NCBI RefSeq assembly: GCF_022693705.1
Contig: NZ_CP094288.1
Span: forward strand, 1,754,526-1,818,525
Source: Infirmifilum sp. NZ
GTDB lineage: Archaea; Thermoproteota; Thermoprotei; Thermofilales; Thermofilaceae
Reading direction: 5' to 3'
Length of the DNA stretch: 64,000 bases
Part shown: positions 38,199-64,000 of the stretch, piece by piece
How the letters are laid out: each line of letters opens with the position of its first letter
How positions within the stretch are numbered: the first letter of the stretch is position 1
The notes under the pieces: generated by a model
What the model was told of the DNA's origin: nothing
Databases searched by the model: none
The model's input: the letters and a program-made list of their open reading frames with translations, nothing else
Translations under genes and position numbers: made by a program

Positions 38199-40298
38199 CT
38201 AGCTACTATGATGCTTCAACGCCTTAGCTAACGCCTCCTCTAATTCCGAGGCTTTCGGCCTCTTTTTCGGCTCCTTGTTTAAGGCCTCTTTGAGAGCAAT
38301 AACCGTTTCCTCGGGGAGATTCTGGCGGAGCAGAGGCACGGGGATATTGGGAGGGCTCGGAGGTGAGGAGGTAATGGTCTCTACGGCAGTCACCGCCAAG
38401 GAGTAAACGTCGCCTTCTCGGCTGTAAACTCCCTGTGTCATAAGCTCTGGAGGAGCGTAAACGGGCGTGTAGGCGAACTTCAGCAGCCTCCTCGCTGTTT
38501 CAAACCTATCGAGGATAACAGCGGTATAGAGGTCGGCGAGGACCGGCTCCATGCTCGAGTACAGGAGTACGTTTTCTGGCTTCAGGTCCCCGTGCACTAC
38601 CCCGTGCTCGTGCAGAACAGCTACCTTGTGGGCGACCCTTGTAGCGACCTCCAGGCGGCGCTTTAAGGGATAGCCGCCCTCGATGAAGCCTCTCAGGCTC
38701 CCGCCGTCAACGTACTCCTGAACCAGCGCAAAGACCTCACGCTCGCTCTCCCCAGTTACAGCGCTCGAGACTGTGAACTTCCCGGCCTCGAGCGCCTCCA
38801 CGACGACCTTCTCGCCTTTGTTCACCTTCTCAGCTGTCTTCGCGGCGTGGTACGCCTCTGTGACCAAGGTGGCTGGGTCGCCGTACATGGGATCAAAAAC
38901 CTTCACGGCGACAAGCCTGTCAGATAGTATGTCGCGAGCTTTATACGTCGCCGCGAAGCCTCCCTGCCCTAGTTGCTCGTGAATAGCGAATCGACGGTTC
39001 AGTATTCTTCCTACGAGTTCGGGAATCTCGCCCAAGCTCTCCGGAACACTCACGCTGAGATCCTGAGAGGATTCGAGAGCGAACTCTTGCCCCATCAATT
39101 CAACCGTCTGCTTCACGGTTACGCGGAGGGTGTTTTCACCCGGGGAGATCGGAATAAGAAGCGTGTGGAATCCCTTCTCCTCCGTCCTCGCGCTTACGCT
39201 TTCACGCTCACGCGAGGCGAGAACAGTGACTCTTTCCAAGCTCTCCCTGCCTGAAGGCGTATTCACAACGATCTTGGCTTCGAGGAAAGGCCTCCCCCCG
39301 ATTCTCTGCAGGCGCATCAGCTTCACCTCAGGATTAATGGCGGTTTTCCTGGCTACCCCCACCCAGTCTACCAGCGAGAAAACAAGGCTCTCTCCTAGAA
39401 AGTCTGCCTCCTCGACTTCGGGGACTGGGAGGTAAGCGAAGTCCCGGGGGCGGCCAAGCCCGTCAAGCACGACGAACCGCCTCCGCAGGAAGGCAAAAAC
39501 GAGCCCATTACCTGTAAGCACGTTCACTACGGGGTCCACTAGAGAACTGGTCCAAACCACTGCGCCGTCGCGCACGCTTAAGCTCAGCAAATCAGGGCTC
39601 TTGGGCTCCCAAACTAGAATCGCATCGCCCAGCTGGGCAACTCGCGGCTCGCTGAACGGTAGCTCTCTCCTCCACCCTCTACTGAGCGACGCGACCTCTC
39701 TCCTCCTAACCGACAAGAGATCTGCGCCGAACAGGAAAAGGCGGAGCTCGTTTACTATAGGCTCACTGTCACGGTACACCTCCTCCAGCTGGGACCCCGC
39801 TAGCTGGAAAGTTATGTGCCCGGAAACCGTTGATAGAGAAACGAGTTTTCCGCTTGAAGCTAGTTCCTGCGGTACTACATTGAGCTGCTTTTCAGCCACA
39901 ACCTCCCCGAGGCAGTTCAACGCGAGAAGGCTGGACTTCAGGAGACCAGCCCTCGCGAGAACGAAGAGGTGGTCTCCGCTAAACGCGACGGGACCTATTT
40001 TCTGGCTGAACCTCCTCTCCGCAACTACGCCGTCCTGGTTCAGGAACACAACCCTGTCGCCTTCCCGTGACGTGCAGACGAGAGCAAAGCTTCCTTTACA
40101 GGTTCCAGACGCCTTGTAGCCTGCCTCAGCCTCGTAGAGCAACTTAGGGGAAGCCCCGTTGGCCGAGAAAACCATTAGCCTGCCGCCGCTCTGCACAGTC
40201 GCAAAGATGGTGTCGCTCAACGCCCTGAGCTTGACTACCCTCCCGGGAAGCTTGTACGCCTCCGCTACGGAGTACTCGGTCAGCCTTAGTGGCTCCAT
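38199..40298 (-). CDS. Ser/Thr protein kinase fused to a propeller-like sensor domain
   Basis: 699 residues. Residues 1-300 are repetitive beta strands of a WD/PQQ-like propeller (for example VVWTSSLVDPVVNVLTGNGL). About 310-415 is Ig-like. A protein kinase domain follows (about 430-695): LGQGGFAATYKARD (Gly loop), VAVKVF (Lys), VVHGDLKPENVLL (catalytic loop, HGD for HRD), VLADLYTA (DLY replaces DFG, the metal Asp kept) and YAPPELM with EGDVYSLAVTAVE. The catalytic set is intact, so activity is likely. No membrane segment. It is the last gene of a four-gene minus-strand operon, 4 nt after the beta-helix protein gene. Propeller-kinase fusions suggest input sensing by protein contact. Confidence 0.85.
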   Translation of the reverse strand: MEPLRLTEYSVAEAYKLPGRVVKLRALSDTIFATVQSGGRLMVFSANGASPKLLYEAEAGYKASGTCKGSFALVCTSREGDRVVFLNQDGVVAERRFSQKIGPVAFSGDHLFVLARAGLLKSSLLALNCLGEVVAEKQLNVVPQELASSGKLVSLSTVSGHITFQLAGSQLEEVYRDSEPIVNELRLFLFGADLLSVRRREVASLSRGWRRELPFSEPRVAQLGDAILVWEPKSPDLLSLSVRDGAVVWTSSLVDPVVNVLTGNGLVFAFLRRRFVVLDGLGRPRDFAYLPVPEVEEADFLGESLVFSLVDWVGVARKTAINPEVKLMRLQRIGGRPFLEAKIVVNTPSGRESLERVTVLASRERESVSARTEEKGFHTLLIPISPGENTLRVTVKQTVELMGQEFALESSQDLSVSVPESLGEIPELVGRILNRRFAIHEQLGQGGFAATYKARDILSDRLVAVKVFDPMYGDPATLVTEAYHAAKTAEKVNKGEKVVVEALEAGKFTVSSAVTGESEREVFALVQEYVDGGSLRGFIEGGYPLKRRLEVATRVAHKVAVLHEHGVVHGDLKPENVLLYSSMEPVLADLYTAVILDRFETARRLLKFAYTPVYAPPELMTQGVYSREGDVYSLAVTAVETITSSPPSPPNIPVPLLRQNLPEETVIALKEALNKEPKKRPKASELEEALAKALKHHSS

Positions 40299-40302
40299 CG
40301 TC

Positions 40303-41451
40303 TCACTCTAAGCGTTTACCGCAGTACAGGCAGAGCTTTTCCGCCTTGGGGTTTGGAGCCCCGCAGTGGGGGCACTTCCTGTACTCTATCCCTCTCTTTT
40401 GGAAGAACTCCTCGATCGTGCTGAAGAGTATGCTGCGGGTCTGCTCAATGGACTCCGCGGCGCCACCCTTGGCGGCTGAGACAAGCTCCTCGATCACCCT
40501 CCTGGGGAGTTCGCTGAGAGGATGCCCATTCACGGTCTTTTTCGCCATGTCAATGTCGAACTTCATGTGAGCAGACTTGTAGAGTAACTTGCTGGATAGA
40601 ACGTTCTGCACGATCATTAGAGGGGAGCTTCTCCAGTACCAACTCATATAGCTGTAGTAGGATCCGTCGGCGCTTGCCCGCTGCAAGTCGAACTCTTTGC
40701 TCAAGTAGTCGTAGCCTAAGTTAGCCTGCCTTCTGGGGCAAGCACCGGACAGGTAGTGCTCGCACAAAAAGGGGTTTTCAGCATCGTTGCAGAAGTAGCA
40801 AGGCAGGCTCATGACCCGGACGTCTTCCGACTTGACCGATATGTCCCCGTTGCGAGCGGCGATCAGGGGCATGAAGACCGTAACGTTCCCTTCAAGCGTT
40901 AAGTTGCCGTGAACGTAGATCTGGAAGACAGAAGAGTCCTTGATCACGGCCTCTCCCTTCACCTCCCGGGAGCCCGCTACGAGCTTACCGAGTATGATCG
41001 AGCGCGCGTTCACGCTTACGTTTGTGAGACCTACTACGTTCCCGAGGATCAGCGAAGGTGCCTCGATGTGAACTTCACGGGCGAGGATGTTGCCGTAGAC
41101 GACGCACGTGCCGCTACCCCTTATCCTCACCACCCCAGCGCCCTCCGGCTGCTCGCTACGGGCCATGGCACCGACGTCGCCGTTCACGAAGGTGTTCCCG
41201 TCGGCCAGCGAGAAGCTCACGTAGCCACCCGAAAGAATGTTCCCCGAGACTATGCTGTCCTCCTTTATTTCTACCGAGTCGAAGGCCATCATATCGTTGA
41301 GTTGAACGATGTCTGAGTCGGCCACGATCTTCCTGACGGCAACTATGGGTTCAGCGCCCCTGTATCCCCCAAGGATGTGAACAATATCCCTCGTTGAGTC
41401 GTACTTCAGCTTCTCTTCCTCTGGGAACCTCCTCTTCAGCAAACCAGGCAT
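40303..41451 (-). CDS. Beta-helix (bactofilin-like) protein with Cys cluster and C-terminal zinc ribbon
   Basis: 382 residues. Residues 40-215 show the short repeated strands of a beta helix, resembling polymer-forming bactofilins: SIVSGNILSGGYVSF, GNTFVNGDVGAM, CVVYGNILAREVHI, LILGNVVGLTNVSV, FQIYVHGNLTLEGN. A Cys cluster follows (CYFCNDAENPFLC...GACPRRQ), then a helical region, and a zinc ribbon CPHCGAPNPKAEKLCLYCGK at the end. A scaffold or polymer that recruits partners through the ribbon is inferred. It abuts the coiled-coil gene upstream (TAG then ATG) and the kinase gene downstream, so it may be a kinase substrate or platform. Confidence 0.65.
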   Translation of the reverse strand: MPGLLKRRFPEEEKLKYDSTRDIVHILGGYRGAEPIVAVRKIVADSDIVQLNDMMAFDSVEIKEDSIVSGNILSGGYVSFSLADGNTFVNGDVGAMARSEQPEGAGVVRIRGSGTCVVYGNILAREVHIEAPSLILGNVVGLTNVSVNARSIILGKLVAGSREVKGEAVIKDSSVFQIYVHGNLTLEGNVTVFMPLIAARNGDISVKSEDVRVMSLPCYFCNDAENPFLCEHYLSGACPRRQANLGYDYLSKEFDLQRASADGSYYSYMSWYWRSSPLMIVQNVLSSKLLYKSAHMKFDIDMAKKTVNGHPLSELPRRVIEELVSAAKGGAAESIEQTRSILFSTIEEFFQKRGIEYRKCPHCGAPNPKAEKLCLYCGKRLE

Positions 41452-42399
41452 CTACCTCACCCCCTCCACCATTTTAGCGATAACGCCTTTCTCGTCCGGC
41501 TCCTTAGCTTCCGACATCAGCGCGCTCAGCTTCGACTTGATTTTATCCGTATCCACCTTCAGCGGAAAGCCCTCGAGCCGGCCGCTAACGTAGCTCACCA
41601 GCCTATCCTCGATGCTCAGCGGCTTGTTCTCGTCAAGCCTAGGCCCGAAGGTTTCGACAACAGGCTCTTCCCGCTCACCCTTGAACGTTACCCTTACCCT
41701 TGTAACGGGGAGAAACAGCACAGTCTCCCTCTCCTTGACGGAGACCGGCTTAAAGGCGAATCTCAGAAGCTGGCCGCTAACCCTCTCGTACGTCGTGCTC
41801 GCCTCGGAGAGTTTTTCCTTTGCCTTCGACAGCGCCGCTTTGATCTTTTCTAACGACTCAATCCTCCTCGAGATATCGGTCTCGACTGCAAGCCTCACAA
41901 TATCCTTGTCCACGTACTCTGGCTCTAGCAGTTGGTACATGCTCCTGATGTCCTCCATCAAGCTCAGAGTCATATCCATGAGGCGGAACTCATCCTGCGA
42001 AATACTGACGAACTGGTCGAAAACGTTGTCCACGGTTTGAAGGTAGGCCCTCATAATCTCCAGGTAGTGCTCTTTGAAGCCGCTCTCAGCCTCCTTAAGC
42101 CTCTCCTCCACGTACTTGAGATACTCCTCCATGCTCTTCAGCTTGGTGCTAGACTCCAAGTACTCCATCGAAAGTAGCATAGCCTTCAAGTAGATGAGCC
42201 TGATAGCCACGTCACGCCTGTTTTCCTCCAACCTGCTGTGTATGTTTCCCAAAGTGGCGCTCATCGCAGAGGATATGCTTACGAGCCTCTCAAGGTAGCT
42301 GGTGAGCGCTCTCTCCAAGGTGAGGACCTCGCCCCTCAGCTCCCTTATCTCCGCCCTCATGGTGTTGATAGCCTGCATTATCCTTTCGGACTCGGACAC
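41452..42399 (-). CDS. Coiled-coil protein of the kinase operon
   Basis: 315 residues, mostly helical, with coiled-coil stretches at 10-75 and 95-225 (RELRGEVLTLERALTSYLERL; SLEKIKAALSKAKEKLSEA). A beta-containing part follows (KERETVLFLPVTRVRVTFKGE) and a charged C-terminus. No membrane helix. GTG start 7 nt after the upstream gene. Its stop is immediately followed by the ATG of the beta-helix protein. No family recognised. Probably a structural or adaptor subunit. Confidence 0.65.
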   Translation of the reverse strand: MSESERIMQAINTMRAEIRELRGEVLTLERALTSYLERLVSISSAMSATLGNIHSRLEENRRDVAIRLIYLKAMLLSMEYLESSTKLKSMEEYLKYVEERLKEAESGFKEHYLEIMRAYLQTVDNVFDQFVSISQDEFRLMDMTLSLMEDIRSMYQLLEPEYVDKDIVRLAVETDISRRIESLEKIKAALSKAKEKLSEASTTYERVSGQLLRFAFKPVSVKERETVLFLPVTRVRVTFKGEREEPVVETFGPRLDENKPLSIEDRLVSYVSGRLEGFPLKVDTDKIKSKLSALMSEAKEPDEKGVIAKMVEGVR

Positions 42400-42406
42400 G
42401 GGCTTC

Positions 42407-44320
42407 TCACCTCTCCCCCTCTATTGAGGATAGGATCCTCGTGATAGCGCTCGTGTCGAAACCTGTGAGGGTTGCGACAGTCTCGGCTCCGAGCAGCGGC
42501 ACGAGGGTGTTTCTGAGACCTTCAATGTACTTCTCAAGCCTCTTAACCTCCGCCTCCGCGTCGAGCTTCCTCTGAATGTACATCTGAACCATCTGCTGGT
42601 AAATACCCGCAGTCGTCTTCCTCTCATCCTTCGTCCTTCTGGAGTCAACCACTTTCGTGCCGAGCTCCAGGGCCCTGTCCTCTATCTTATCTGCGTACTC
42701 GTTAAGGAGACCCATGTAGCCCTTCACCACGGGTAGGAGCAGCCTCTTCATGTAGATACCCTCCCCCGGCGGGATAACCGAGCCGCACCGACCGCACCTG
42801 ATAGTCGGCTCCTCGAACAGAGACTCCTTGCGGACTTCGATCATCTCGTCGGCTCCCGTCGCCACCAGCGAAAAGTACCTCAAACCCTGCCGGTACCCCT
42901 CCTCCATTTCCTTGAGCTCGGCTTTCTTGGAGACGCCAGGTAGGGGGAGAAGCCTGTAGCTCTTCTCGACGAGCTCTGACCACCTCTTCCCCACCTCCTC
43001 TGCGGCAACCGGATACGGGCTAACAATGTCAGGGTCCTCGTTAACGCCACCCAGAACCCGAGCAAAAACCCACCTCCTGAAATCCAGCTCGGCCATGTAC
43101 CTGTCTATGTACGTCTCAGCGCACCTCGGGCAGAAGATCACGTTGTGCCAGAACATGAGCAGCGTCGGGCTCATAGGCACGGTGACCTCGATAAGCTCCT
43201 TGACAGCCTCCTCCACAAGGCTCGCGTAAATGTCGCTCCTCTCCTCGAGCTGCCTAGCCTCCTCGATAAAGCGCGAAATGTCCCTTAAAGTCTTCACGGT
43301 AGCTTCAATGCTCTCGAGTTCGGCGAATTGCCCGACAACTCTATCCAAGTCGTCTCTAGTAAATCTCCCCTCAGGAAGCCCCGGTTGAAGCTTAACCTCA
43401 CCCCCCAGAGCCTTATCCACAAGCTTCGCCACATCCTCCCCAGCTCCCTCCAGCCCCAGCAAGACCTCCTCCTCCTCGATCGACGAAAGCATCCTCGTAG
43501 TAGCCTCCTCCACGGCCTCCCTGAGAAGCTCCTCGGGGCTCCTTGTGGAGAGAACCTTCTCCCAGAGCTTCATCTCCGAGAGGGCCCTATACACCTTGTA
43601 GCCCGCGTCCTTCTCCCGCAAGATCCCCTCTACGTATATTTCCTCACCCGCCTGAAGCCTTTCAAAACCCTCTGACAGCGCGCTTCTATCAGCAACGTAC
43701 GAAAGCCTGACCCTTTCACCCTCAGACCACGGCGCGACCATAACACACCCAGCCGCGTCTTCCAGCCTGTAGACGCCAACCGGAACATAAACCTTGAAAG
43801 CCTCAACCCTAACCTCCGGTACGCTGAAACTCCTTATCCTCTTCCCCAGCTCCCCGATCTCTCTGAAAATATTATCCAGAGTCTTACTTAACGCGTCCTT
43901 TTCATTCTTCAGCCTCACTAACTCTTTTTGGATGCTCAGCACCCTAGAATGCTGAGAGAATGCATACACCAAGGCTATTAATGAAACCAAGAACATGAAA
44001 ACGCCAACATCAGCGGCCCTGCTCGCCATGAATAGCAGTGTCAGCAGTAAAAACAAAGCCCCAACCAAACCTGAGAAAAGCCTGTAAGTCTCCGCCGTGG
44101 CGAGCTCCTGCACGTAGCGATTAGACAGCTCGTCGATCTCTCTTATCCTCTTCTTCGCCTCTCTCCCCCTCCTCTCCAGGTCCCTGAGCCTGCTCTTAAG
44201 CTCCCGGTACTCCATTAAAACAGCTCTGAACTTGTTTGAGATTATAGAGGTTGCGCGTTCAACGACGTCGTCCTCGTAAGCTAGCAGGGAATTAGGGAGA
44301 ACTAAGCTCTCCCTCGCCAT
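42407..44320 (-). CDS. Membrane coiled-coil protein with two CxxC motifs, first gene of the kinase operon
   Basis: 637 residues. An N-terminal coiled coil (25-65), then two adjacent membrane helices (LVGALFLLLTLLFMAS and VGVFMFLVSLIALVYAF), and a second coiled coil (RLKNEKDALSKTLDNIF). After that comes a large cytoplasmic region with two zinc-type CxxC sites: VIFCPRCAETYIDRY (about 400) and TIRCGRCGSVIPPGEG (about 525). A final helical pair ends the protein. The ATG at 44320 has a TATA element TTTTTATATTG 15-25 nt upstream (44334-44345). Function unknown. It is likely the membrane anchor of the kinase/scaffold complex encoded by the following genes. Confidence 0.7.
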   Translation of the reverse strand: MARESLVLPNSLLAYEDDVVERATSIISNKFRAVLMEYRELKSRLRDLERRGREAKKRIREIDELSNRYVQELATAETYRLFSGLVGALFLLLTLLFMASRAADVGVFMFLVSLIALVYAFSQHSRVLSIQKELVRLKNEKDALSKTLDNIFREIGELGKRIRSFSVPEVRVEAFKVYVPVGVYRLEDAAGCVMVAPWSEGERVRLSYVADRSALSEGFERLQAGEEIYVEGILREKDAGYKVYRALSEMKLWEKVLSTRSPEELLREAVEEATTRMLSSIEEEEVLLGLEGAGEDVAKLVDKALGGEVKLQPGLPEGRFTRDDLDRVVGQFAELESIEATVKTLRDISRFIEEARQLEERSDIYASLVEEAVKELIEVTVPMSPTLLMFWHNVIFCPRCAETYIDRYMAELDFRRWVFARVLGGVNEDPDIVSPYPVAAEEVGKRWSELVEKSYRLLPLPGVSKKAELKEMEEGYRQGLRYFSLVATGADEMIEVRKESLFEEPTIRCGRCGSVIPPGEGIYMKRLLLPVVKGYMGLLNEYADKIEDRALELGTKVVDSRRTKDERKTTAGIYQQMVQMYIQRKLDAEAEVKRLEKYIEGLRNTLVPLLGAETVATLTGFDTSAITRILSSIEGER

Positions 44321-44628: not shown

Positions 44629-46590
44629 TTGCGACCCTTAACAGAGGCATGGCGAAAAAATTTGCGCCTCATCCTCGTCATATTCCTCTTCGTTATGCAC
44701 TTTCTCCTAGTTACAGCTATGGGCCAGCCGGCAAGCTGCCCCTCCTTTACCCGTTATCGGGGCAACGAGATCAGACTCCACGTCGACAGCAGGTACGCGG
44801 AGGTTACAGCGTGGTTCACCCCCGTCGACCTGGACTGGGCTACTTTTCGCGCCCAGTGCTTCGACCCAGACCCCTCATACTGGTACAGCGGCCTCCTAAA
44901 CAGGGTCACAGGCATGTTCGCCCTCAGCCAGGCTCAGCTTCTCGGCTACGGGGCCAGCGACTCCTCGAGGCAGGTCTACGTCGCGGTGGGCTTCTACTTC
45001 TCCTGGTCGAGCTACTACAGCGAGGATGACGGCGTCCTGAAGTTCAGGGACGTGTTCAAGCCAGGCGGCGGCTACTTCGACGAGGTGCACGTCTACTCCG
45101 ACAAGCCGGTCTACGGGTGGGAGCCCACTCCAACCCGCTACACGAGCCAGGAGGCCCACTGGCTCAACCCGAGCTACAGCGCCGCGCCGTCCTGGTACAT
45201 CGTGTACCTCTGGCCCGTCCCCAAGGTGACGGTGAGGGTAGAGGGCCTGCCCTCGTCGTACAGCGTCCAGCTGAGTATCGACGGCAAGCCGGTGGGTTAC
45301 GTCCGCGGGGGGAACAGCCAGGTGTTCAGGGTCAGCGGCGCGAATGTTAGCGTCGGCGTGCAGCCCGTCGTAGACGTCGATGAGAAAACAAGGTACCGCG
45401 TCGACCGGGACACTATCTCCGCCAGCGCGGGGGGAGAGGCTGTGTTCCGCTACTACAGGGAGTTCCTCGTGCGCACCGATACCTCCCCCTCAGGCGTGGA
45501 AATCACCGTCGGAGGGGCGTCGTGCAGAACGCCCTGCTCTACTTGGGTCAGGGAGGGAGACACGCTGAGCGTAACCGTGCCGGAGAGGGCACTTGAGAGC
45601 TCCTTGTCAACCACCAGAACTTACTACGCTTTCACGGGGTGGAGCGACGGGTCCAGCGAGCGTAGCAGGTACATTACGATCCAGACCCCCTTGAGCATCA
45701 CCGCGTCCTATACGAGGGTGACAGAGCACTACGTGAGCGTTGTAGCGAGCCCGCCTGAGGCTTCAAGGGGTGTTTCGGGGTCGGGCTGGTACCGCGAGGG
45801 CTCTGTGGCCACGTTAAGGGCGAACGAGACAATACAGGTCAGCGACTACGAGAGGCTCAGGTTCCTCGGGTGGTCCACCGGAGAGACTTCCGGGCTCATA
45901 ACCAAGGCCGTCAACTCACCCCTCAGCATAGAGGCTAGGTATGAGCGGGAGTACAGGGTTGAGGTGCGGAGCGACTTTGGGGTCGTGTTCGGCTCAGGCT
46001 GGTACCGCAGTGGCGATGAAGCAAGGGTGGGGTTGGAGGGCCTCAAGGACGGCTACTACTACAGCCCCGACGGGAAGGCTAGGTACAGGTTCCAGGGCTG
46101 GAGGGTTCTGAGGAGTAGCATCCAGCCTCCCAGCACCCCCATCCTCGCGCTCAAGGTAGACGGCCCGGTAATCCTCCAGGCAGAGTTCGGGTCACCAGAG
46201 TACTACGTCTGTGTAGACGGGAACTGCGAGTTCCTGAGCGAAGGGTCAGCGATATCCCCGCGGGAAGATGAGCCAATACTCGGAGGCCTTATGAGAAAGG
46301 TGTTCGAGGGCTATCTAGACCCTTTCGGGAGGAACCTCGGGCGTAGCCCTGCGGTGAACGGTCCTATGGTGTTGTCTAGCGCGTACAGGACTGAAGTCAA
46401 CTGGCCGCTAACGGTGGCGGTAGCGCTCATTGTTGCGGTGTCTTTTCTGGCCGTGCCTCTGAGCAAAAGAAGAAGTAAGACCAGTGAAAGCACCGTGGAG
46501 AGGAAGAAAGAAGAAAAAATAGAGGAGTTGACGAAAGAAATAGAATCCCTCGAGGAGGAGCTCAAAAAGAAGTTCACCGGGAAGGAGTAG
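44629..46590 (+). CDS. Large surface protein with InlB/Flg_new_2-type repeats and C-terminal membrane anchor
   Basis: 653 residues. A signal peptide (LRLILVIFLFVMHFLLVTAMG) leads an extracellular domain with aromatic-rich N-terminal part (about 35-210). Three or four beta repeats follow, of the type found in bacterial surface proteins (YAFTGWSDGSSERSRYI, LRFLGWSTGETSGLIT, YRFQGWRVLRSSIQP: each a GW motif after a strand). Near the end are a membrane helix (WPLTVAVALIVAVSFLAVPL) and a charged cytoplasmic coiled coil (KKEEKIEELTKEIESLEEEL). The start is uncertain: TTG 44629 is nearly too close to the TATA at 44613-44619, and TTG 44662 is an alternative. The cytoplasmic coiled coil could signal to the intracellular scaffold proteins. 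Confidence 0.75.
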   Translation: MRPLTEAWRKNLRLILVIFLFVMHFLLVTAMGQPASCPSFTRYRGNEIRLHVDSRYAEVTAWFTPVDLDWATFRAQCFDPDPSYWYSGLLNRVTGMFALSQAQLLGYGASDSSRQVYVAVGFYFSWSSYYSEDDGVLKFRDVFKPGGGYFDEVHVYSDKPVYGWEPTPTRYTSQEAHWLNPSYSAAPSWYIVYLWPVPKVTVRVEGLPSSYSVQLSIDGKPVGYVRGGNSQVFRVSGANVSVGVQPVVDVDEKTRYRVDRDTISASAGGEAVFRYYREFLVRTDTSPSGVEITVGGASCRTPCSTWVREGDTLSVTVPERALESSLSTTRTYYAFTGWSDGSSERSRYITIQTPLSITASYTRVTEHYVSVVASPPEASRGVSGSGWYREGSVATLRANETIQVSDYERLRFLGWSTGETSGLITKAVNSPLSIEARYEREYRVEVRSDFGVVFGSGWYRSGDEARVGLEGLKDGYYYSPDGKARYRFQGWRVLRSSIQPPSTPILALKVDGPVILQAEFGSPEYYVCVDGNCEFLSEGSAISPREDEPILGGLMRKVFEGYLDPFGRNLGRSPAVNGPMVLSSAYRTEVNWPLTVAVALIVAVSFLAVPLSKRRSKTSESTVERKKEEKIEELTKEIESLEEELKKKFTGKE

Positions 46591-56804: not shown

Positions 56805-57053
56805 TCAGGACTTGAGAGCAGCTATCGCCCTCGTAATTCTATTGAAGCTGTCCTCTTTTATGATCCCTCTCGAGTAAAGCTCGTAAACCTCTCTCTCAAG
56901 CTGTTCGAGCTCCTTGCGGGTGAGCTCTCTTTTCTTCCCATCCTTAATTTTCATTATAAGATAGGTGGTTGAAGCACCTGCAGCGGCCCCCGCGGCAATT
57001 TTAATAATATCCTTCACAAGCTCTTCAGGTAACTTGATGGTTGGCAACTTCAT
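56805..57053 (-). CDS. Small Gly-rich membrane protein with SHOCT-like tail
   Basis: 82 residues from ATG 57053 (MKLPTIKLPEELVKDI), a Gly/Ala-rich hydrophobic helix (IIKIAAGAAAGASTTYLIM) and the SHOCT-like end LEREVYELYSRGIIKEDSFNRITRAI. The start is supported by the TATA candidate GTTTAAAAATGCG (57073-57085, minus strand) 20-30 nt upstream, which lies inside the longer in-frame version from 57110. Same plan as 48432-48881. Confidence 0.65.
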   Translation of the reverse strand: MKLPTIKLPEELVKDIIKIAAGAAAGASTTYLIMKIKDGKKRELTRKELEQLEREVYELYSRGIIKEDSFNRITRAIAALKS

Positions 57054-57171
57054 ACAAAAAATCTCTGAAAAACGCATTTTTAAACTTTTTCGAGAATAAG
57101 CCCTCCTCACAGACTACGCTTGCACTCTCAAGTGGGGACTAACCTTGCTTTCCAACCGCAAAGATGAGGCT

Positions 57172-57731: not shown

Positions 57732-58883
57732 TCACATCCCACTCCACGCTACCCCCTCGCGCACTTTAACCCGCGCGTCGTCTAAAACCCTGTAACCGTT
57801 GAGCTCGAGGGTTGCGTGCCTTTCGATCCACGGGTCGTTGATGGGGACAGCCTTGAACGAGAGGTTGGCGGACTTCACCTCCCTTGGGAGGTAGACTGTT
57901 CTCTCCAACCAGTTACCTTTCCGGTACGGGAGACCACCGTAGTACACCCGGTTCGCGAACACGGGTACCGTTTGACCCGACTCGGCTGAGTTGAGCTTGG
58001 CAATAATGTCATGGAAAACCTGCGAGTTGTAGAACGTCTTGAGCTCCCGCAACCGGTACGGCACAAACGGGTGCGATTGCTCGAGCTCGGCCAGTTTAAC
58101 TAGAATGCTCCACGTTACCTCCTTATCCACTTGAGACACATAGCTATCGACATCAACCTCGCTCACGTCTTTTGAGCGAAGGTGAACCTTTAGGAGCGCC
58201 TTTTGAGACGCGTCCAGCTTGCCCGAGCAGATAAGGCCAGCCCTGTCACATGTAAACTCTGCAGCGTGCAACCACTTACTCAAGGCAACTTTAAGAAGTG
58301 CGTTCCCAACGATATAGGCCGGTAGCCCGAGTAAGTCTGGGAGACCTAGGCTCGCGAGGTTCGCGAGAGCATAAAGCGCCGTAGTGTACACCAAGTGGTT
58401 GCTCTTGATGTGCCCGAACTCGTGCCCGATCACGAACTTCAACTCATCATCCTCGAGGTTCGAGACAACCTCGCTACCAATGACAACGATAGGCTTCTCA
58501 TCGGATCCAATGCTGAAGGCGTTCCAGCCCTCAGGGAGCCTCCCTGAGACGTAGACTTCCGGGAGCCTAGGGAGCGAAAGCCTCTCCGCGCACTCCAGCA
58601 CGAGCCTGTGAACGCGTGGGTAGTTCTTCTCGCTCACTTTGACGTAGTGACCGATCGCGGCGATTCGCTGGAACGAAGCTACAAGGTTTGAGACCAGCTT
58701 CATAAGCGCAGGCAGGAATACAGTCGAATCTATGAAGTTCTGCGCCTCCCTGTCCAAAGGGTGCTCGTACTCCTCGGGGTAAATGTACCTCGTCTCGCTG
58801 ATGCTCAGGTTGCCCCCACAGTACAGGCAGAACCTCGCGCTCTCCGGGTTTAGCCTGCCGCAGACGGGGCAAACACTCTGCAT
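57732..58883 (-). CDS. M48 (HtpX-like) metallopeptidase with N-terminal zinc ribbon; 3' end frameshifted
   Basis: 383 residues as written. It begins with a zinc ribbon CPVCGRLNPESARFCLYCGG. The M48 catalytic site is VIGHEFGHIKSNH (HExxH), with the third ligand in AEFTCDRAGL. Unlike HtpX there are no strong N-terminal membrane helices. A hydrophobic stretch (LYALANLASLGLPDLLGLPAYIVG) lies after the site. The C-terminal 90 residues are beta. At a G5 run near 57755-57760 the frame ends soon (GVAWSGM). Adding one G gives REGGSVEWDVTPVV and continues 40 residues to a TGA at 57637-57639. So a full-length protein would be about 415 residues. The two zinc ribbons elsewhere (40303-41451, 37164) suggest a shared partner. 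Confidence 0.85.
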   Translation of the reverse strand: MQSVCPVCGRLNPESARFCLYCGGNLSISETRYIYPEEYEHPLDREAQNFIDSTVFLPALMKLVSNLVASFQRIAAIGHYVKVSEKNYPRVHRLVLECAERLSLPRLPEVYVSGRLPEGWNAFSIGSDEKPIVVIGSEVVSNLEDDELKFVIGHEFGHIKSNHLVYTTALYALANLASLGLPDLLGLPAYIVGNALLKVALSKWLHAAEFTCDRAGLICSGKLDASQKALLKVHLRSKDVSEVDVDSYVSQVDKEVTWSILVKLAELEQSHPFVPYRLRELKTFYNSQVFHDIIAKLNSAESGQTVPVFANRVYYGGLPYRKGNWLERTVYLPREVKSANLSFKAVPINDPWIERHATLELNGYRVLDDARVKVREGVAWSGM

Positions 58884-59398: not shown

Positions 59399-59423
59399 CG
59401 AAATTAAACCCCCCGTCCTTCTA

Positions 59424-59546: not shown

Positions 59547-59657
59547 AAAGAGCGTATGGAAAAGGTTGTTTTTGAGTCACGCGAGAACCGGTTGAACTAA
59601 ACCAAAGATATCTTCTTGAAAAAGCTTAAGTATATGCTTAAAGAAAGTGCTATAGTG

Positions 59658-60668
59658 ATGAGTGGCTCCGATGAAGGAATCTTGGAAAAGCTCTATGAAG
59701 AATGGGAGAATTTAGGAAGGCTAAGAGAGTTTCTCAATCGCACTGAACGAGACTTTAGCGATGCATTGGGCATGACCGAAAGATGCCTTCCAATGAGGGA
59801 GATATTCAGCGCCATTCAAAAAGCCCACACATTTGTCGACGTCATTTCCCAAACATTTACCAGCATTGTTTCCCAAAGCTTTCCCATCAGCGTTAACACC
59901 CTGGAAACCTACCTGAAAAAACTAAGAGAGGACGCTGACACCCTCTACAGTTTCCTAGAGGAGAAAACTTCCGAGGACATCCACATGATGGAATTACGCA
60001 TATGCGAGAATAGAGAACTTCAAGGATACATAATTAACTTCATCACGAGAATCAACGCAGACATCAGAGGCTTCACCGACGCGGTTAACACACTGAGAGA
60101 CATGATCGCCGAAGAGATCATTAGAAGAGGGGGGAGAGACATGATCTCGGGAGAGATCATTCGAAGAGGAGGAGCCCCGATTCCCCCGCAGCCTCCTCCA
60201 CAGCCCCCTACTCCTGTTAAGTCGCTCTCGGTCGGCGTTTTCCACTACAGAGTGACGTCAACCCCTGTGGTCTTCATCCTCGGTCGTTGCGACCCAGCAG
60301 ACCCGAGTGAGCCGAGCCACCTCTGCGTGAAGGACGAGGGCGGGCAGACGCTATACCTGTTCAAGGACATCGAGTGCCTTTGGGGCTGTCCTCGGGATGA
60401 CGCGCCGGAAGGGTGTACTCACAGGAAGCACGCGGAGATAAGAGTCGAGGAAAATGCTGTGAGGATCAGGAAGCTCGGCACCTTCCCGATCTACGAGTGC
60501 ACTGCTGCCGGTCTCCGGGAGGTAGACTCGCTCGAGCTCAGGCCCGGTCAGAGGGCCTTAATATCCCTGGCGGGCCTGAGGAGACTCGGGGCGCGCGGGG
60601 AGAGGTACACGGTGCACGGAGAAGGGCGCGCAACAGCCCTCCCGTGCATCGAGGTGTCCGTGAGTTGA
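59658..60668 (+). CDS. Helical-domain plus FHA-domain protein
   Basis: 336 residues. Residues 1-150 are helical (RLREFLNRTERDFSDAL; LETYLKKLREDADTLYSFLEE), then a proline-rich linker (PIPPQPPPQPPTP) and an FHA domain: FILGRCDPADP (GR loop) and THRKHAEIRV, the phosphothreonine-recognition motif (usual S-R-x-H, here H-R-K-H). A Cys-rich insert (CLWGCPRDDAPEGC plus earlier CDP, LCV) may bind metal. The ATG at 59658 lies 22 nt after the TATA element CTTAAGTATATG (59625-59636), so upstream in-frame starts are rejected. The stop overlaps the kinase start by 4 nt, coupling reader and writer of phosphorylation. Confidence 0.82.
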   Translation: MSGSDEGILEKLYEEWENLGRLREFLNRTERDFSDALGMTERCLPMREIFSAIQKAHTFVDVISQTFTSIVSQSFPISVNTLETYLKKLREDADTLYSFLEEKTSEDIHMMELRICENRELQGYIINFITRINADIRGFTDAVNTLRDMIAEEIIRRGGRDMISGEIIRRGGAPIPPQPPPQPPTPVKSLSVGVFHYRVTSTPVVFILGRCDPADPSEPSHLCVKDEGGQTLYLFKDIECLWGCPRDDAPEGCTHRKHAEIRVEENAVRIRKLGTFPIYECTAAGLREVDSLELRPGQRALISLAGLRRLGARGERYTVHGEGRATALPCIEVSVS

Positions 60669-62104
60669 GCTTTGAGCGGCTTGTAGAGAGGGTTTCATAC
60701 CTACTGGAGGCGTACGGCAGGCATGGGAGCCCAGCCGACTACGCGTACAGGCTTAGCGAGCTCTGCGCGCTCGCGGACGAGCTGGGGGTGCCTGGGCTGT
60801 GCGACTACGGCAAGCGCTCGTTGGAGCAGTGGGTCAAGGAGGGTAAGAGCCAAGGCTACATCCTGAGCAAGCTCAAGGAGTGGTGTGACCTCCTCGTTGA
60901 CAAGGCCCCGCTACTCAGGGAGGCGTCCGAGGATTTGAGAAGGCGCATCGCAACCCCCGACGACCTCAAGCAACTGCAACCCCCGCAGCCAGGCGGGGTT
61001 ATCCTTACCCGCTCCGTGATAGTGAAGAGAGGCGCCTCAGGTAGGCTCTACCTCGAGTTGAGGAACGACACCGACTTTAGGGCTGTCGTCACTCGGGTCG
61101 TGTTCGACGGCGACGTTAAGCTGGCGCTCCCCCTTGGCTTCATCGAAGTCAGGCCTCGTAGCTCAGCGCTCATTGAGAGGGAAGTGCTCGTGAAGTCTGA
61201 TCCAAGCTACGTGGAGGTCAGCTTTAAGCAAGTGGGCGGCGAGAATCGCCTTAAGGGGGGTGTCTCGCTGAGGCTTGCCGAAAAAGCTGTGGACTACAGG
61301 GAGCTACTCGGGAAGCCTGTCGAGGCGCTAAGGTCCGCCTCAAGTGTGGAGGCATGCCGTGAGAGGGTGACCACGCGGGAGAGGTTCGGCGAGTGGGAAG
61401 CCTACTGCAAGCTCTCCGAGGGAGGGTTTAGCGAGACTTACCTAGCCACGCGGGGCAAGGAGTGGGGGGTGGTGAAAGTCGCGAGAGAGGATCCCGAATC
61501 GAGGAGGGCGATCGAGAGGGAGTATGATATCCTCTCCTCCGCTAAGGGCCTCCCGGGGAACGTGAGGGCTCACGTAGTCGAAGTTATTGACCACGGGGTC
61601 AGCGCGGTCGGGCTACCTTACATCGTTCTCAGGTACTACCCAAAGGGGAACCTGCTGAGCGTGGCGGGGCGGCTCGACGAAAAGAGCGCCCTGGCCGTGC
61701 TCCTGCAAATCGGCGGAACCCTCATGGAGCTGTACACGAGGGGAATAATAAGGAAGCACGGGGACCTCAAACCCGAGAACGTGCTCATAGACGACGAAGG
61801 GAGACCTGTGATAGCGGACTTCGGCGTAGCCCTCGAGCCAAGGTACACGATGAGGAGTCAGGCCACGACACCCGGCTACGGTTGCAGAGCCGACGACGAG
61901 CGGGCGGACGTCTACGCGCTGGGAAGGCTCCTCGTGGACATGATCAGGGGGGTCGAAGCCCCAGAGGATAGCGTCCCCGCCTCTTTAAGCACTCTCGTGA
62001 GAGCCTCCCGCGCCAAGAGAGGGGACGGTTCCTGCGACCCCGCTAACATACCCAGGATGGAGGAGTTCATCAAGGTGGTACAAGACCGCTTACTGCTCTT
62101 TTAA
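60665..62104 (+). CDS. Ser/Thr protein kinase coupled to the FHA protein
   Basis: 479 residues. The N-terminal 110 residues are helical, 120-225 is beta-rich (VILTRSVIVKRGASGRLYLELRN), and a kinase domain follows (about 240-475): LSEGGFSETYLATR (Gly loop), VVKVARED (Lys), IEREYDIL (alpha-C Glu), KHGDLKPENVLID (catalytic loop, HGD), VIADFGVAL (DFG intact) and TPGYGCRADDERADVYALGRLL. The TTG at 60665 overlaps the FHA gene stop (TTGA), with GAGGTG 8 nt upstream. A longer in-frame version is rejected because it lies within the FHA gene. The 3' end overlaps the convergent coiled-coil gene by 15 nt. It is expected to phosphorylate Thr residues read by the FHA domain. Confidence 0.88.
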   Translation: MSFERLVERVSYLLEAYGRHGSPADYAYRLSELCALADELGVPGLCDYGKRSLEQWVKEGKSQGYILSKLKEWCDLLVDKAPLLREASEDLRRRIATPDDLKQLQPPQPGGVILTRSVIVKRGASGRLYLELRNDTDFRAVVTRVVFDGDVKLALPLGFIEVRPRSSALIEREVLVKSDPSYVEVSFKQVGGENRLKGGVSLRLAEKAVDYRELLGKPVEALRSASSVEACRERVTTRERFGEWEAYCKLSEGGFSETYLATRGKEWGVVKVAREDPESRRAIEREYDILSSAKGLPGNVRAHVVEVIDHGVSAVGLPYIVLRYYPKGNLLSVAGRLDEKSALAVLLQIGGTLMELYTRGIIRKHGDLKPENVLIDDEGRPVIADFGVALEPRYTMRSQATTPGYGCRADDERADVYALGRLLVDMIRGVEAPEDSVPASLSTLVRASRAKRGDGSCDPANIPRMEEFIKVVQDRLLLF

Positions 62105-63718
62105 CACCCTGGCAGCCAGCTCCTCCTTCTCCGCCCTGCACTCGGCTAGCTGTTTTTTAGTACTCTCGAGCTCCTGCCGTAGCGACTCGTTGCTCTTGAT
62201 AACCTCCTCGTACCTCATCCTGAGGCTCTCAAGCTCCTTCAGCTTCTCCTCGTACTCCCGAGCCTGATCCTCAGCACGAGCCCTCGCCTCCTCGAACCTG
62301 GCCATAGCCTTCAGCAGCTGCTCCCTAACACCCTCCAGCCTCCGGCGCTCCTCCTCCGCCCTCCTGATCTCCTCTTCCACCTTTTTCCTCCTCTCGGAGA
62401 CCTCTTGCTCGAACTTCTCCCACTCGGCCTTCAGCTCCGCCTCGCGGGCCTCGATCTCCTTCTCTCTGCTTTCAACAGCCTTCTCCCTGGCCTCTACCGT
62501 GGCGCGTAGCCTATCAACCTCCGCCTTCAGACTCTTCAAAGCGCTCTCCCTGTCCTGGACTTCCCTCTCCTTCTCGGTCAGCGCCTTCTGCTGCTTGTCC
62601 AGTTCCCTTTGCTTCTGCTCGAGGAAGGAGAGCCTTTCCCCGATCACCCGGAGCATGTCCTCGGCCTGCTTCATCCTAAGCTTCAGCTCCGACTCCCGCT
62701 GCACCAGCTCCTGCTCCAGCTTCTGCAGCGACGCCTCGCGCATCTTGAGCTCGTTCTCACGCCTCGAGAGCTCCTCCTCCCTTTCCTGCAGTCTCCGCTC
62801 CAGGCTCTTGAGCTCCTCTTCCCTCTCCCTAATCTTATTGCTCTCCTTTTCTAGAGTCTTCTTCAGCTTATCGAGCTCCTCCCTCTCCTGCACCACGCGC
62901 GCTAGAACCTCGGAGACCTCCTTCACCTTCTCGACAAGCTCACCTTCCCGAGCGTTGATGAACCCAAGCCTCGATTTTATGTTCTCCTCCAGCTTTTCCA
63001 GAGTCGAGGCGAGCTCGTCCCGGCGCTTCTCGAGCTCCTCCACATCTCCGGCCAGCTTCTCGTGAAGCTGCCTCAGCCCCTCCAGCTCCTTCTCCCTCTT
63101 CTCCACCTCCGCCAGTCTCCTCGCCAGAGCCTCCTCCCTCGACGCGAGCTCTTTGGCCCACGAGTCCAGCTTAGACCTCGCCTCCATGAGCTCTCTGAGG
63201 GTGTCGTTCAGGTGCGAGACCTCCTCGGATATAGTCCTCCTAGCGCTCTCCGCCTCGCCGGCCATTTTCCTGAAACTGCCCTCGAGGCTCAGAGAGAAGG
63301 CCTTCATCTCCTCAACTGTCTTTCCGAGAACAGAGTAGGCGTCCGTTAACGTCTTGAGGGAGGATTGCAGGAGCTCAAGCCCCTTGTTGATCTGCTGCTT
63401 CCTTGTCTCCAGGTCGTGGATGCTCTTCGCGACGCTGTACACCTCTTCTTCGTACTTCTTCACTTGCCTAAGCCTCTCCTCGAGGTCACCTCTTATCTTC
63501 TCAGCCTCGCCGACGAACTTGCTGAGAGACGCGTTGAAGCTATCGAGGAGAGAGCGGGTAGTTTCGTCGAGCCTCGCCAGCGCCTCAGGGAACTTGTACA
63601 TGATCGCGAAAACAGCCTCATCCCTGGAGAGCTCTTCGTTCTTTGCGATCTTCTTCTGGTGGAGCTTCTCCGCCTCCTTCTGGGCCAGCTTCACTACCTG
63701 CTCCAGAGAGTAGGACAT
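62090..63718 (-). CDS. Long coiled-coil protein (SMC/myosin-rod-like, no ATPase)
   Basis: 542 residues, almost entirely Glu/Lys/Arg/Leu heptads from about 60 to 535 (for example ELSRRENELKMREASLQKLE; REKAVESREKEIEAREAELKAE). A short non-coiled N-terminus (EQVVKLAQKEAEKLHQKKIAKNEEL) precedes. There are no Walker motifs, membrane helices or zinc ligands. A rod of roughly 70 nm if continuous. It could be a scaffold for the kinase/FHA system. The ATG lies 3 nt after the upstream coiled-coil gene. Confidence 0.75.
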   Translation of the reverse strand: MSYSLEQVVKLAQKEAEKLHQKKIAKNEELSRDEAVFAIMYKFPEALARLDETTRSLLDSFNASLSKFVGEAEKIRGDLEERLRQVKKYEEEVYSVAKSIHDLETRKQQINKGLELLQSSLKTLTDAYSVLGKTVEEMKAFSLSLEGSFRKMAGEAESARRTISEEVSHLNDTLRELMEARSKLDSWAKELASREEALARRLAEVEKREKELEGLRQLHEKLAGDVEELEKRRDELASTLEKLEENIKSRLGFINAREGELVEKVKEVSEVLARVVQEREELDKLKKTLEKESNKIREREEELKSLERRLQEREEELSRRENELKMREASLQKLEQELVQRESELKLRMKQAEDMLRVIGERLSFLEQKQRELDKQQKALTEKEREVQDRESALKSLKAEVDRLRATVEAREKAVESREKEIEAREAELKAEWEKFEQEVSERRKKVEEEIRRAEEERRRLEGVREQLLKAMARFEEARARAEDQAREYEEKLKELESLRMRYEEVIKSNESLRQELESTKKQLAECRAEKEELAARVLKEQ

Positions 63719-63721
63719 CGT

Positions 63722-64000
63722 TTACTTCTCGGAGAGTTTGCTAATAAGGTTTTTCTCACAGCAGAGGTCTAAGGAAGAGGCGAACGTGTCGAGAGCCCTG
63801 TTCAAGTCTTCGCGCAGGGCCTCCAAAAGAGCCACGACCGAAGCCGCGTCGTCCGCGGTTGCGAGCACCCTGCCGCCGAGCTCGTCTAGCCTCCTGTTGA
63901 CGTCGCTCCTCAGGCTCTCAAGCTGCTGCTTAACGCTCTCTAGGAACCTGGACTGCTCCCTAAGCATCCTGTCAGACGCCGTGCTTACGGTGCGCTGAAC
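63722..64000 (-). CDS. Coiled-coil protein, partial (N-terminus off the right edge)
   Basis: The frame is open from the stop at 63722-63724 to the window end (92 codons). It begins VQRTVSTASDRMLREQSRF as seen here, then continues with helical heptads (VKQQLESLRSDVNRRLDEL; LLEALREDLNRALDTFASSL) and ends CCEKNLISKLSEK. ATG 63967 could be an internal Met rather than the start. It immediately precedes the 542-residue coiled-coil gene, so they are probably cotranscribed and may form one filament. Confidence 0.65.
   Translation of the reverse strand, partial: VQRTVSTASDRMLREQSRFLESVKQQLESLRSDVNRRLDELGGRVLATADDAASVVALLEALREDLNRALDTFASSLDLCCEKNLISKLSEK

What the first reader, a model, noticed from the sequence alone, without database searches (positions are those of the whole stretch)
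38199..64000. Candidate undescribed kinase/FHA/scaffold/protease system spanning about 26 kb
Seen: two Ser/Thr kinases, two paralogous FHA-type proteins, four long coiled-coil proteins, a bactofilin-like zinc-ribbon protein, an M48 peptidase with a zinc ribbon, a signal-less subtilase with a separate I9-like protein, an HD hydrolase, surface proteins with C-terminal membrane anchors and many small membrane proteins with a shared tail motif. Several neighbours overlap by 4 nt. Known: kinase plus FHA pairs act as writer and reader of phosphothreonine. Inferred: a membrane-attached complex in which surface proteins (44629-46590) signal through a cytoplasmic coiled coil to kinases that control regulated proteolysis and a filament scaffold.
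Basis: partly seen in the sequence, partly recalled or inferred. Interest (0 to 1): 0.85.

Follow-up and report, generated by a model that had tools for sequence, protein, structure and literature searches.

The report
Archaeal kinase-scaffold-protease island, ESCRT-linked
A block of about 26,000 bases in a heat-loving archaeon holds a real but rarely carried set of genes - kinases, coiled-coil scaffolds, a membrane-tailed protease and a protein sharing its signature domain with archaeal ESCRT-type (membrane-sorting) gene clusters - which may form an undescribed phosphorylation-controlled machine at the membrane.

Summary
The cluster is real, extends past the window, and has a conserved core. 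Module A (propeller-like kinase, bactofilin-like Zn-ribbon protein, two coiled coils, two small proteins, I9-like protein, tail-anchored subtilase, SPTGW protein) recurs as one block in a second genome of the genus at about 28-45% identity; subsets recur in Thermocladium, another genome of that family and an order-level MAG. Module B (kinase, FHA-like protein, HD enzyme, two coiled coils, SPTGW protein, small tail protein) recurs compactly in a korarchaeote, more weakly in the second genome. The genome's three strongest kinase matches lie in the island.

Its C-terminal domain is homologous (hhalign 98.5%, E 1.6e-15) to one in coiled-coil proteins which, in some archaea, sit beside Vps4-like or MIT-domain genes, kinases and an FHA protein. 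They fit the published arCOG09748 protein of 'Main-clade' ESCRT loci; that identity was not tested directly. Here neither Vps4 nor ESCRT-III was found.

The M48 peptidase and surface protein are not core. FHA, bactofilin, I9 and shared-tail labels are motif-level or weak.

Best guess: a membrane-attached, phosphorylation-controlled sorting or proteolysis complex, an ESCRT-III-less cousin of those loci. A defence island is a serious rival. Ankyrin genes bracket the modules.

The parts
37134..37764 (-). Degenerate ankyrin-repeat gene at the left border of the island
   Evidence: tblastn and blastn against the copy at 65245-66033: 75.6% DNA identity over 611 bp, same orientation
38199..40298 (-). 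K1: kinase with a long N-terminal part (weak PQQ-propeller match); core of module A
   Evidence: Pfam Pkinase 3.9e-26 at 438-679, PQQ_2 0.011 below cut-off; relatives next to BAC in G021 and G281; VAVK, HGDLKPEN, ADLY
40303..41451 (-). BAC: bactofilin-like (beta-solenoid) protein with C-terminal zinc ribbon; core of module A
   Evidence: Zn_Ribbon_1 1.2e-5; best PDB profile hit is bactofilin 6ria at E 0.12; homologues in G021, Thermocladium, G281
41452..42399 (-). CC1: coiled-coil protein, core of module A
   Evidence: relatives adjacent to BAC in G021 (3.9e-32) and Thermocladium
42407..44320 (-). CC2: membrane coiled-coil protein with two CxxC motifs; core of module A
   Evidence: hydrophobic segment from residue 81; G021 33% over 576 aa; Thermocladium 4.1e-26; CxxC at 397 and 509 kept in G021
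44629..46590 (+). Surface protein with InlB-type repeats and C-terminal anchor; not core
   Evidence: hydrophobic segments 14-32 and 594-612; weak Flg_new_2; no homologue in the G021 stretch
47215..47583 (+). DUF5518 membrane protein; loosely associated
   Evidence: Pfam 1.4e-11; relatives in G021 (75236-75598) and next to the NEW669 gene in L040
47724..48335 (-). CC203: helical protein of module A
   Evidence: profile A9 in 300 phylum genomes: G000, G021, G281 and one broken-frame match; also L040
48432..48881 (-). TM149: membrane protein with SHOCT-like tail, module A
   Evidence: relatives next to CC203 in G021, L040, L065; tail recovered when its family was left out, 4.7e-5
48967..49290 (+). 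Small I9-like protein paired with the subtilase
   Evidence: 40% identity over 80 aa in G021; no database match; L065 has a small gene in the same place, relation not shown
49366..50952 (+). SUB: subtilase without N-terminal hydrophobic segment, with C-terminal membrane segment and helical tail; core of module A
   Evidence: Pfam 2.4e-49; T7SS mycosin model 138 bits, cut-off 278.75; 45% over 525 aa in G021; motifs at 130, 161, 357
51518..52999 (+). HD hydrolase (HD-CE type); module B
   Evidence: PF24391 1.1e-14; in-cluster relatives in G021 (9.5e-8), Thermocladium and korarchaeote (1.4e-10)
53266..55275 (-). NEW669 / SPTGW protein: helical N-terminus, beta repeats read as Ig-like, C-terminal SPTGW domain, helical tail
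   Evidence: relatives in G021, L040/L044, L041/L046, L045; domain homologous to arCOG09748-like proteins, hhalign 98.5%, E 1.6e-15; Ig-like part from a low-confidence model
55272..55688 (-). SH138: small protein with N-terminal hydrophobic segment and helical tail, next to NEW669
   Evidence: adjacent to NEW669 in G021 (8e-5), L040 (1.5e-24), L041 (5.8e-10), L045 (2.8e-12)
55782..56750 (-). FHA1: helical protein with degenerate FHA-like C-terminus (GR, SREQ)
   Evidence: paralogue of FHA2; Pfam FHA not matched
56805..57110 (-). SH101: small protein with possible SHOCT-like tail
   Evidence: 5e-4 and 2.4e-3 in two of four leave-one-out profiles, 0.3 in one, absent in one
57732..58883 (-). M48 peptidase with zinc ribbon; not core
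   Evidence: Pfam 1.2e-23; other full-length relative among 81 genomes only in G001 C33, without cluster genes around it
59616..60668 (+). FHA2: helical plus FHA-like protein with C-x-W-G-C motif; module B
   Evidence: relatives beside module B genes in Thermocladium (6.2e-12) and korarchaeote (9.4e-9); GR/THRKH
60656..62104 (+). K2: long N-terminal part and kinase domain; module B (start codon inferred)
   Evidence: Pfam 5.6e-14; korarchaeote orthologue 1.4e-52, 34% identity over the length; G021 only kinase-domain match
62090..63718 (-). CC542: long coiled coil, module B
   Evidence: korarchaeote match 148.6 bits (bias 96.9) in the same convergent place next to K2; G021 47.7 bits with bias 47.2
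63722..64000 (-). CC323: coiled coil, module B (gene runs on to about 64693, outside the window)
   Evidence: whole ORF in L007 248-1219; same place as in the korarchaeote, but scores 14.6-17.6 bits are mostly bias

Best explanation
The island encodes a membrane-attached, phosphorylation-controlled protein-assembly system made of two modules. Shown: a conserved gene set that recurs in subsets across distant archaea, and a signature protein (53266-55275) whose key domain is homologous to one in coiled-coil proteins of archaeal ESCRT-type/kinase loci. Inferred: the kinases K1 and K2 phosphorylate island or cargo proteins; FHA-like and coiled-coil proteins read this and assemble at the membrane through the SPTGW protein, CC2 and the small tail proteins; BAC polymerises into a scaffold; and the tail-anchored subtilase, held in check by the small I9-like protein, cleaves what is gathered. 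It would be a phosphoprotein-sorting or regulated-proteolysis complex, an ESCRT-III-less cousin of archaeal ESCRT 'Main-clade' loci.
For: Synteny with G021: K1, BAC, CC1, CC2, NEW669, TM149, CC203, SUB and I9-like all match within C1:60824-72550; HD and CC542 relatives and further kinases follow at 84-93 kb. Thermocladium (L041/L046): K1 piece, BAC, CC1, CC2, HD, NEW669, SH138 and FHA2 relatives on one 15.5-kb contig. G281: BAC, K1, CC203, TM149, subtilase start in order. Korarchaeote L045: K2, CC542, CC323, NEW669, SH138, HD, FHA2 in 9.4 kb. BAC picks G000, G021 and G281 out of 398 genomes (G281 cut by its contig end) and CC203 picks the same three out of 300. SPTGW-domain homology, hhalign 98.5%, E 1.6e-15. 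The homologous proteins sit near an MIT-domain protein in L066 (2e-4), Vps4-like AAA in L090 and L091 (Vps4_C 2e-3 and 5e-4) - these three below Pfam cut-offs - kinases in L066, L089, L090, L091, and a true FHA in L089 (9e-11). K3 just right of the window matches three kinases at L090/L091 at 4e-53 to 4e-59. Published Main-clade loci: arCOG09748 with coiled coil, central domain and winged helix, plus kinases and phosphatases (PMC10936438, section 5 read in full). Catalytic motifs present in K1, SUB, M48, HD.
Against: No Vps4-like or ESCRT-III gene was found here, so the membrane-cutting part of ESCRT is missing; the Snf7 model rang in only 1 of 14 control genomes, so absence of ESCRT-III is weakly tested. 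That the homologues are arCOG09748 itself was judged from architecture and neighbours; the arCOG model was not run, the small neighbour gave no DUF3568 match, the presumed ESCRT-III genes of L090/L091 gave no Snf7 match, and the L088 contig shows the SPTG protein without kinase or Vps4. FHA, bactofilin and I9 labels are not statistically supported. Module B in G021 is weak: K2 matches only in the kinase domain, CC542/CC323 scores are mostly bias, and its FHA-like proteins were not found as FHA1/FHA2 relatives by phmmer. The korarchaeote K2 has Arg where the kinase Lys is expected. The modules are not always together: G001 has NEW669/SH138/TM149/CC203, but no BAC was found.
Confidence: 0.4

Rival explanations
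1. An anti-virus or other conflict system: the kinases and HD enzyme sense infection, and the tail-anchored subtilase, freed from its I9-like partner, damages the host cell or viral proteins.
For: Patchy: not found in the 98%-complete genome labelled same species nor in most sampled genomes. Low-GC core (0.47-0.53 at 46-60 kb). PADLOC kinase-domain matches to MAD6 (126 bits) and PD-T4-6, subtilase matches (122.5 bits, also IetS) and a HerA-like neighbour matching MAD8 (57.7 bits) and HerA. The ankyrin neighbour matches PADLOC ankyrin-bearing models.
Against: PADLOC matches cover generic kinase, subtilase, ankyrin or ATPase domains; NCBIfam MAD6 scores 111 against a cut-off of 460. NEW669, BAC, HD, M48, FHA1 and FHA2 have no PADLOC match at E 0.01, and CC1, CC2, CC542 only coiled-coil ones. 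K2, K3 and the small proteins were not scanned against PADLOC. Signature-domain relatives sit in ESCRT-type loci.
Confidence: 0.27
2. A cell-envelope or cytoskeletal organiser: BAC polymer plus CC2 and coiled coils set cell shape or a polar site, with kinases tuning assembly; the proteases are secondary.
For: K1-BAC-CC1-CC2 is the tightest block and recurs in G021 and Thermocladium; a beta-solenoid-like protein next to a membrane coiled coil and a propeller kinase also occurs in G070.
Against: Bactofilin identity is weak (E 0.12 to 1); module B and the subtilase are then unexplained; close relatives live without it.
Confidence: 0.17
3. A hypervariable island of mostly unrelated accessory genes gathered between ankyrin-gene repeats.
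For: Ankyrin genes frame the modules in both genomes; M48, surface proteins and some small genes are not shared; an HD relative occurs alone.
Against: Overlapping subsets of the same genes recur in five other genomes (G021, G001, Thermocladium, G281, korarchaeote), often in the same order and at low identity.
Confidence: 0.1

Closest known systems
Archaeal ESCRT 'Main' and Halo_FHA loci (arCOG09748, arCOG08177, kinase, phosphatase, Vps4, ESCRT-III; PMC10936438)
   Same: A domain homologous to that of arCOG09748-like proteins; kinases; FHA-like proteins; coiled coils; the paper suggests phosphoprotein sorting
   Different: No Vps4 or ESCRT-III found; SPTGW domain here joined to beta repeats and a helical tail instead of coiled coil and winged helix; extra solenoid protein, HD enzyme, subtilase and I9-like pair
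T7SS mycosins (TIGR03921)
   Same: Subtilase with C-terminal membrane segment, 138 bits
   Different: Below cut-off 278.75, no hydrophobic N-terminal segment, separate small I9-like gene; no type VII component among the family matches apart from this model
MADS defence (MAD6 kinase, MAD8 ATPase)
   Same: Kinase domain and a HerA-like ATPase nearby
   Different: Only domain-level matches; no other MADS component among the proteins scanned
Bactofilins
   Same: Best PDB profile hit is a bactofilin
   Different: E 0.12 only; long C-terminal region with zinc ribbon

Membership tests
Archaeal ESCRT system | Vps4-type AAA ATPase (MIT domain or ESCRT neighbourhood) | tested here: not met
   No AAA family among island genes scanned; in G000 and G021 the strong matches of a Vps4-like query are Cdc48-size ORFs of 727-751 aa
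Archaeal ESCRT system | ESCRT-III/Snf7 protein | tested here: inconclusive
   No Snf7 match in G000, G021, G001, G281, G403, but the model rings in only 1 of 14 controls
Archaeal ESCRT Main clade | arCOG09748-type protein: coiled coil, central domain, C-terminal winged helix | tested here: inconclusive
   Domain homologous to arCOG09748-like proteins; coiled coil and winged helix not seen in NEW669; the arCOG model itself not run
FHA domain proteins | Pfam FHA match | tested here: not met
   No match at E 10 for FHA1, FHA2, L045, L041, L091 and two G021 proteins; L089 matches. GR and SRxH-like motifs only; hhalign 0.3%
Bactofilin | Bactofilin fold/profile match | tested here: inconclusive
   Pfam E=1, PDB 6ria E=0.12
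Subtilase S8 | Catalytic Asp/His/Ser and S8 profile | tested here: met
   2.4e-49, motifs at 130, 161, 357
Inhibitor I9 | I9 profile match | tested here: not met
   0 Pfam families at E 0.1; no PDB I9
Hanks-type kinase | Pkinase profile over cut-off and catalytic motifs | tested here: met
   Pfam for K1, K2, K3; HxD and DFG-type motifs in all three, Lys motif in K1 and K3; K2's GVVKVA is seen in the alignment, not by the pattern
PD-(D/E)XK (restriction-endonuclease-like) fold for the SPTGW domain | Fold match to solved members | tested here: inconclusive
   Model pLDDT 71.6, pTM 0.69; best Z 6.6 (1y88, rmsd 3.9, 107 aligned), EndoMS 6.4, Rpb5 6.2 and FokI 5.9 below it, with unrelated acetyl-CoA carboxylase at 6.5; Foldseek no E below 1e-3
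MADS or other PADLOC defence system | Full-length component matches and gene set | tested here: not met
   Only domain-level matches; MAD6 111 bits against 460; K2, K3 and the small proteins not scanned

The most novel reading that the evidence does not exclude
A previously undescribed archaeal machine: an ESCRT-III/Vps4-independent, kinase-controlled membrane assembly built around the arCOG09748-type central domain, in which a beta-solenoid polymer and a tail-anchored, inhibitor-guarded subtilase replace membrane scission by local proteolysis of phosphorylated cargo, carried as an exchangeable two-module cassette framed by ankyrin genes.
Probability: 0.25. Interest if true: 0.85.

Novelty: new variant of a known kind. 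Interest (0 to 1): 0.62.

Why it matters
It ties an orphan domain of archaeal ESCRT-type loci to systems without Vps4 or detectable ESCRT-III, in a lineage whose cell biology is poorly understood, and suggests that the kinase/SPTGW/coiled-coil part can act apart from membrane scission. That gives a direct test of what the arCOG09748-type central domain does, and of whether phosphoprotein sorting came before or after ESCRT in these archaea.

Tried and rejected
Surface protein 44629-46590 as receptor of the system: dropped, no homologue in the G021 stretch. M48 as core: dropped. Virus origin: of 10 proteins scanned against PHROGs, the kinase, subtilase, M48 and HerA-like proteins match and CC2 marginally; a viral-contig scan with BAC found no relative in 261 candidate stretches; not pursued. 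Genome scan with BAC: 0 relatives of 117 stretches, although BAC is in Thermocladium, whose contig lies in that collection; so that scan is insensitive. First structure job on the single NEW669 sequence: poor, pLDDT 50.6. The fold hint (restriction-endonuclease/Rpb5-like) is too weak to claim: Z at most 6.6; families not listed are not excluded. FHA by hhalign: failed.

Hits set aside before counting; 40 of 81 genomes match the K2 profile; apart from G000 the listed matches cover only the kinase part; 49 of 398 match the NEW669 profile; 7 cover the SPTGW domain, the rest only the Ig-like part; 18 of 398 match BAC; 3 are true, G070 is a distant solenoid, most others zinc ribbons; 7 of 398 match CC2; 5 cover only about 60-105 positions; 14 of 81 match; G000, G021, G001, G403 and a piece in G005 cover the C-terminal part, the rest only the Ig-like part. 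G001, which has CC203, is not among the matches and so was evidently not drawn.

Literature (open-licence PMC only). Searches (0 papers; 1; 15 of 36 listed; arCOG09748: one work, in two versions; 5; 10 of 21 listed; HD-CE: 8 of 12 listed, none about this domain by title; 5, none about MADS by title; 8 of 17 listed). None seen in these listings describes this cluster. eLife PMC7159879 was seen as passages only. From PMC10936438 I read section 5 in full and passages elsewhere.

Full report
WHERE IT IS. The window is G000:C1:1754526-1818525 of a 1,829,130-base single-contig genome. Named hits of relatives suggest class Thermoprotei; the genus looks like Thermofilum (recalled, not tested). Six Pkinase matches exist in the genome; four pass Pfam's cut-off, and the three strongest lie at 38.3-39.0 kb, 61.4-62.0 kb and 66.5-67.3 kb in window numbering. 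The fourth lies elsewhere in a 246-aa frame; I take it to be a small Bud32/RIO-like kinase (recalled).

WHAT IS THERE. Kinase K1, zinc-ribbon protein BAC, coiled coils CC1 and CC2 form a tight run (38199-44320). Then come a surface protein, small membrane proteins, CC203, TM149, a small I9-like protein and the subtilase SUB, an HD enzyme, the large protein NEW669 with SH138, FHA1, small proteins, M48, FHA2 and K2, and coiled coils CC542 and CC323. K3, a second surface protein and a HerA-like ATPase follow outside the window.

IS IT MORE THAN A NEIGHBOURHOOD? BAC occurs in 3 of 27 genomes of the order: the window's, G021 (43%, full length) and G007 (zinc-ribbon part only); the genome labelled same species has none. 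In G021 a block at C1:60803-72613 holds K1, BAC, CC1, CC2, SH138-like (8e-5), NEW669, TM149, CC203, SUB and I9-like genes. A second stretch at 84406-93130 holds two kinases, an HD relative (9.5e-8), a coiled-coil pair matching CC542/CC323 mostly by composition bias, and two proteins with FHA-like motifs that phmmer did not link to FHA1/FHA2. So module A is firmly shared with G021 and module B only loosely.

NEW669 led to a 6-kb contig of Thermoprotei archaeon B15_G2 (G001) with DUF5518, NEW669, SH138, TM149 and CC203 followed by a Cdc48-like gene, and to Thermocladium modestius (G403), where one 15.5-kb contig holds K1 pieces, BAC, CC1, CC2, HD, NEW669, SH138 and FHA2 relatives, with broken frames in an assembly rated 47% complete. 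It also led to Candidatus Methanodesulfokora washburnensis, a korarchaeote, with K2 (1.4e-52), CC542, CC323, NEW669, SH138, HD and FHA2 relatives within 9.4 kb; K2, CC542 and CC323 have the same relative order and strands as in the window. BAC led to G281, where BAC, K1, two other genes, CC203, TM149, a small gene and the start of a subtilase follow each other; the last three overlap by 4 nt.

A CC203 profile over 300 phylum genomes finds G000, G021, G281 and one broken-frame match. BAC over 398 picks the same three. G001 has CC203 without a BAC match, so the link is strong but not perfect. CC2 covers its length only in G000 and G021 of 398. A conserved core thus exists, sparsely spread and not found in close relatives: an accessory system. 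GC is lower in its middle (0.47-0.53).

THE KEY DOMAIN. The C-terminal part of NEW669 carries the motif SPTGW and a following LKTGE-type motif. A profile over 398 phylum genomes matched that part in seven: G000, G021, G001, G070, G038, G086 (two copies) and G400. In the last four genomes it sits in 599-652-aa proteins with a helical start, coiled coil, the SPTG[WFY] domain and a further C-terminal part that looks like a winged helix (the winged helix is my reading of the sequence). Profile-profile comparison between the two groups gives 98.5%, E 1.6e-15 over 207 columns.

Neighbours there: kinases in L066, L089, L090 and L091, some with propeller matches; a true FHA protein in L089 (9e-11); an MIT-domain protein in L066 (2e-4, below cut-off); Vps4-like AAA ATPases with below-cut-off Vps4_C matches in L090 and L091. 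Before each of these two ATPases lies a 204-206-aa helical gene that I take for ESCRT-III-like, though Pfam does not match it. The L088 contig shows no kinase or ATPase of this kind beside its copy. K3 of the window's genome matches three kinases of L090 and L091 at 4e-53 to 4e-59.

[quoted passage not shown] The arCOG number itself was not tested. That paper gives most TACK archaea a minimal CdvABC system; loci of this kind in these genomes, and the domain in this island, would extend it.

WHAT IT IS NOT. No Vps4-type gene was found in the window's genome or G021, and no Snf7 in the five class genomes that carry cluster genes, with a weak control. It therefore cannot be filed as an ESCRT system. 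The SPTGW model (pLDDT 71.6) has no significant Foldseek hit; several of the closest by VIA-align are restriction-endonuclease-like and Rpb5 folds at Z up to 6.6, mixed with an unrelated carboxylase at 6.5, below the trusted level.

HOW IT MAY WORK (inference). Kinases mark proteins; FHA-like and coiled-coil proteins gather them; NEW669, with SH138, CC2 and TM149, anchors the assembly at the membrane; BAC may polymerise; SUB, tail-anchored with its active site probably in the cytoplasm because it lacks an N-terminal hydrophobic segment, cleaves cargo and is held by the small partner. K1, SUB, HD and M48 carry their catalytic motifs; the korarchaeote K2 has Arg for the usual Lys. Rivals are a defence system, a scaffold or shape system, and a mixed island.

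CASSETTE FRAME. Ankyrin-repeat genes border the island in the window's genome (37134-37764, degenerate; 65245-66033; 75.6% DNA identity over 611 bp, same orientation), with two more copies further right (74107-74598) and at the other contig end (L008). In G021 they border both modules (60225-60608, 74011-74670, 83798-84277, 93218-94423). No other ankyrin match was found in window 1-37000 or in the rest of the 75-kb G021 stretch. They may mediate exchange or be components.

NOVELTY. None of the listings seen (open-licence PMC only, partly truncated) describes this cluster. I rate it a new variant: it shares a homologous domain and partner types with a known kind of locus but fails its Vps4 test.

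Noticed in passing
37134-37764, and 65245-66033 just right of the window (L007): Ankyrin-repeat genes frame the island; ankyrin genes also frame both modules in G021. The copy at 65245-66033 ends in a zinc-ribbon-like CxxC pair.
   Followed up: partly
45729-46205 and L007 (window numbering 69853-70329): The two surface-protein genes share an inverted 480-bp stretch at 79% identity.
   Followed up: no
L007, window numbering 68013-68145 and 68240-68372: A perfect 133-bp direct repeat.
   Followed up: no
L007 8231-10561; L014 9655-11559: HerA-like ATPases near kinases in both genomes, matching PADLOC MAD8/HerA models at domain level.
   Followed up: partly
L014 12276-13199 (G021:C1:82276-83199): A protein that reads as a PPP-type Ser/Thr phosphatase (GDIHGDY, GDYVDRG, GNHE; my reading of the sequence) lies between the two modules; I saw none among the island genes of the window's genome.
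   Followed up: no
L042 3-911: An ORF at a contig end of G005 matches NEW669 of G021 (1.3e-5) and starts with a stretch that resembles SH138 by eye: a possible fusion.
   Followed up: partly
L066 4563-12994: In G070 an SPTGW-domain protein, a propeller-kinase, a membrane coiled coil and a beta-solenoid-like protein sit in a row, about 4 kb from an MIT-domain gene: a distant parallel of module A.
   Followed up: partly
19141-19378 and 19751-19932: About 78-80% similar DNA recurs near the other end of the contig (L008 1935-2389).
   Followed up: no
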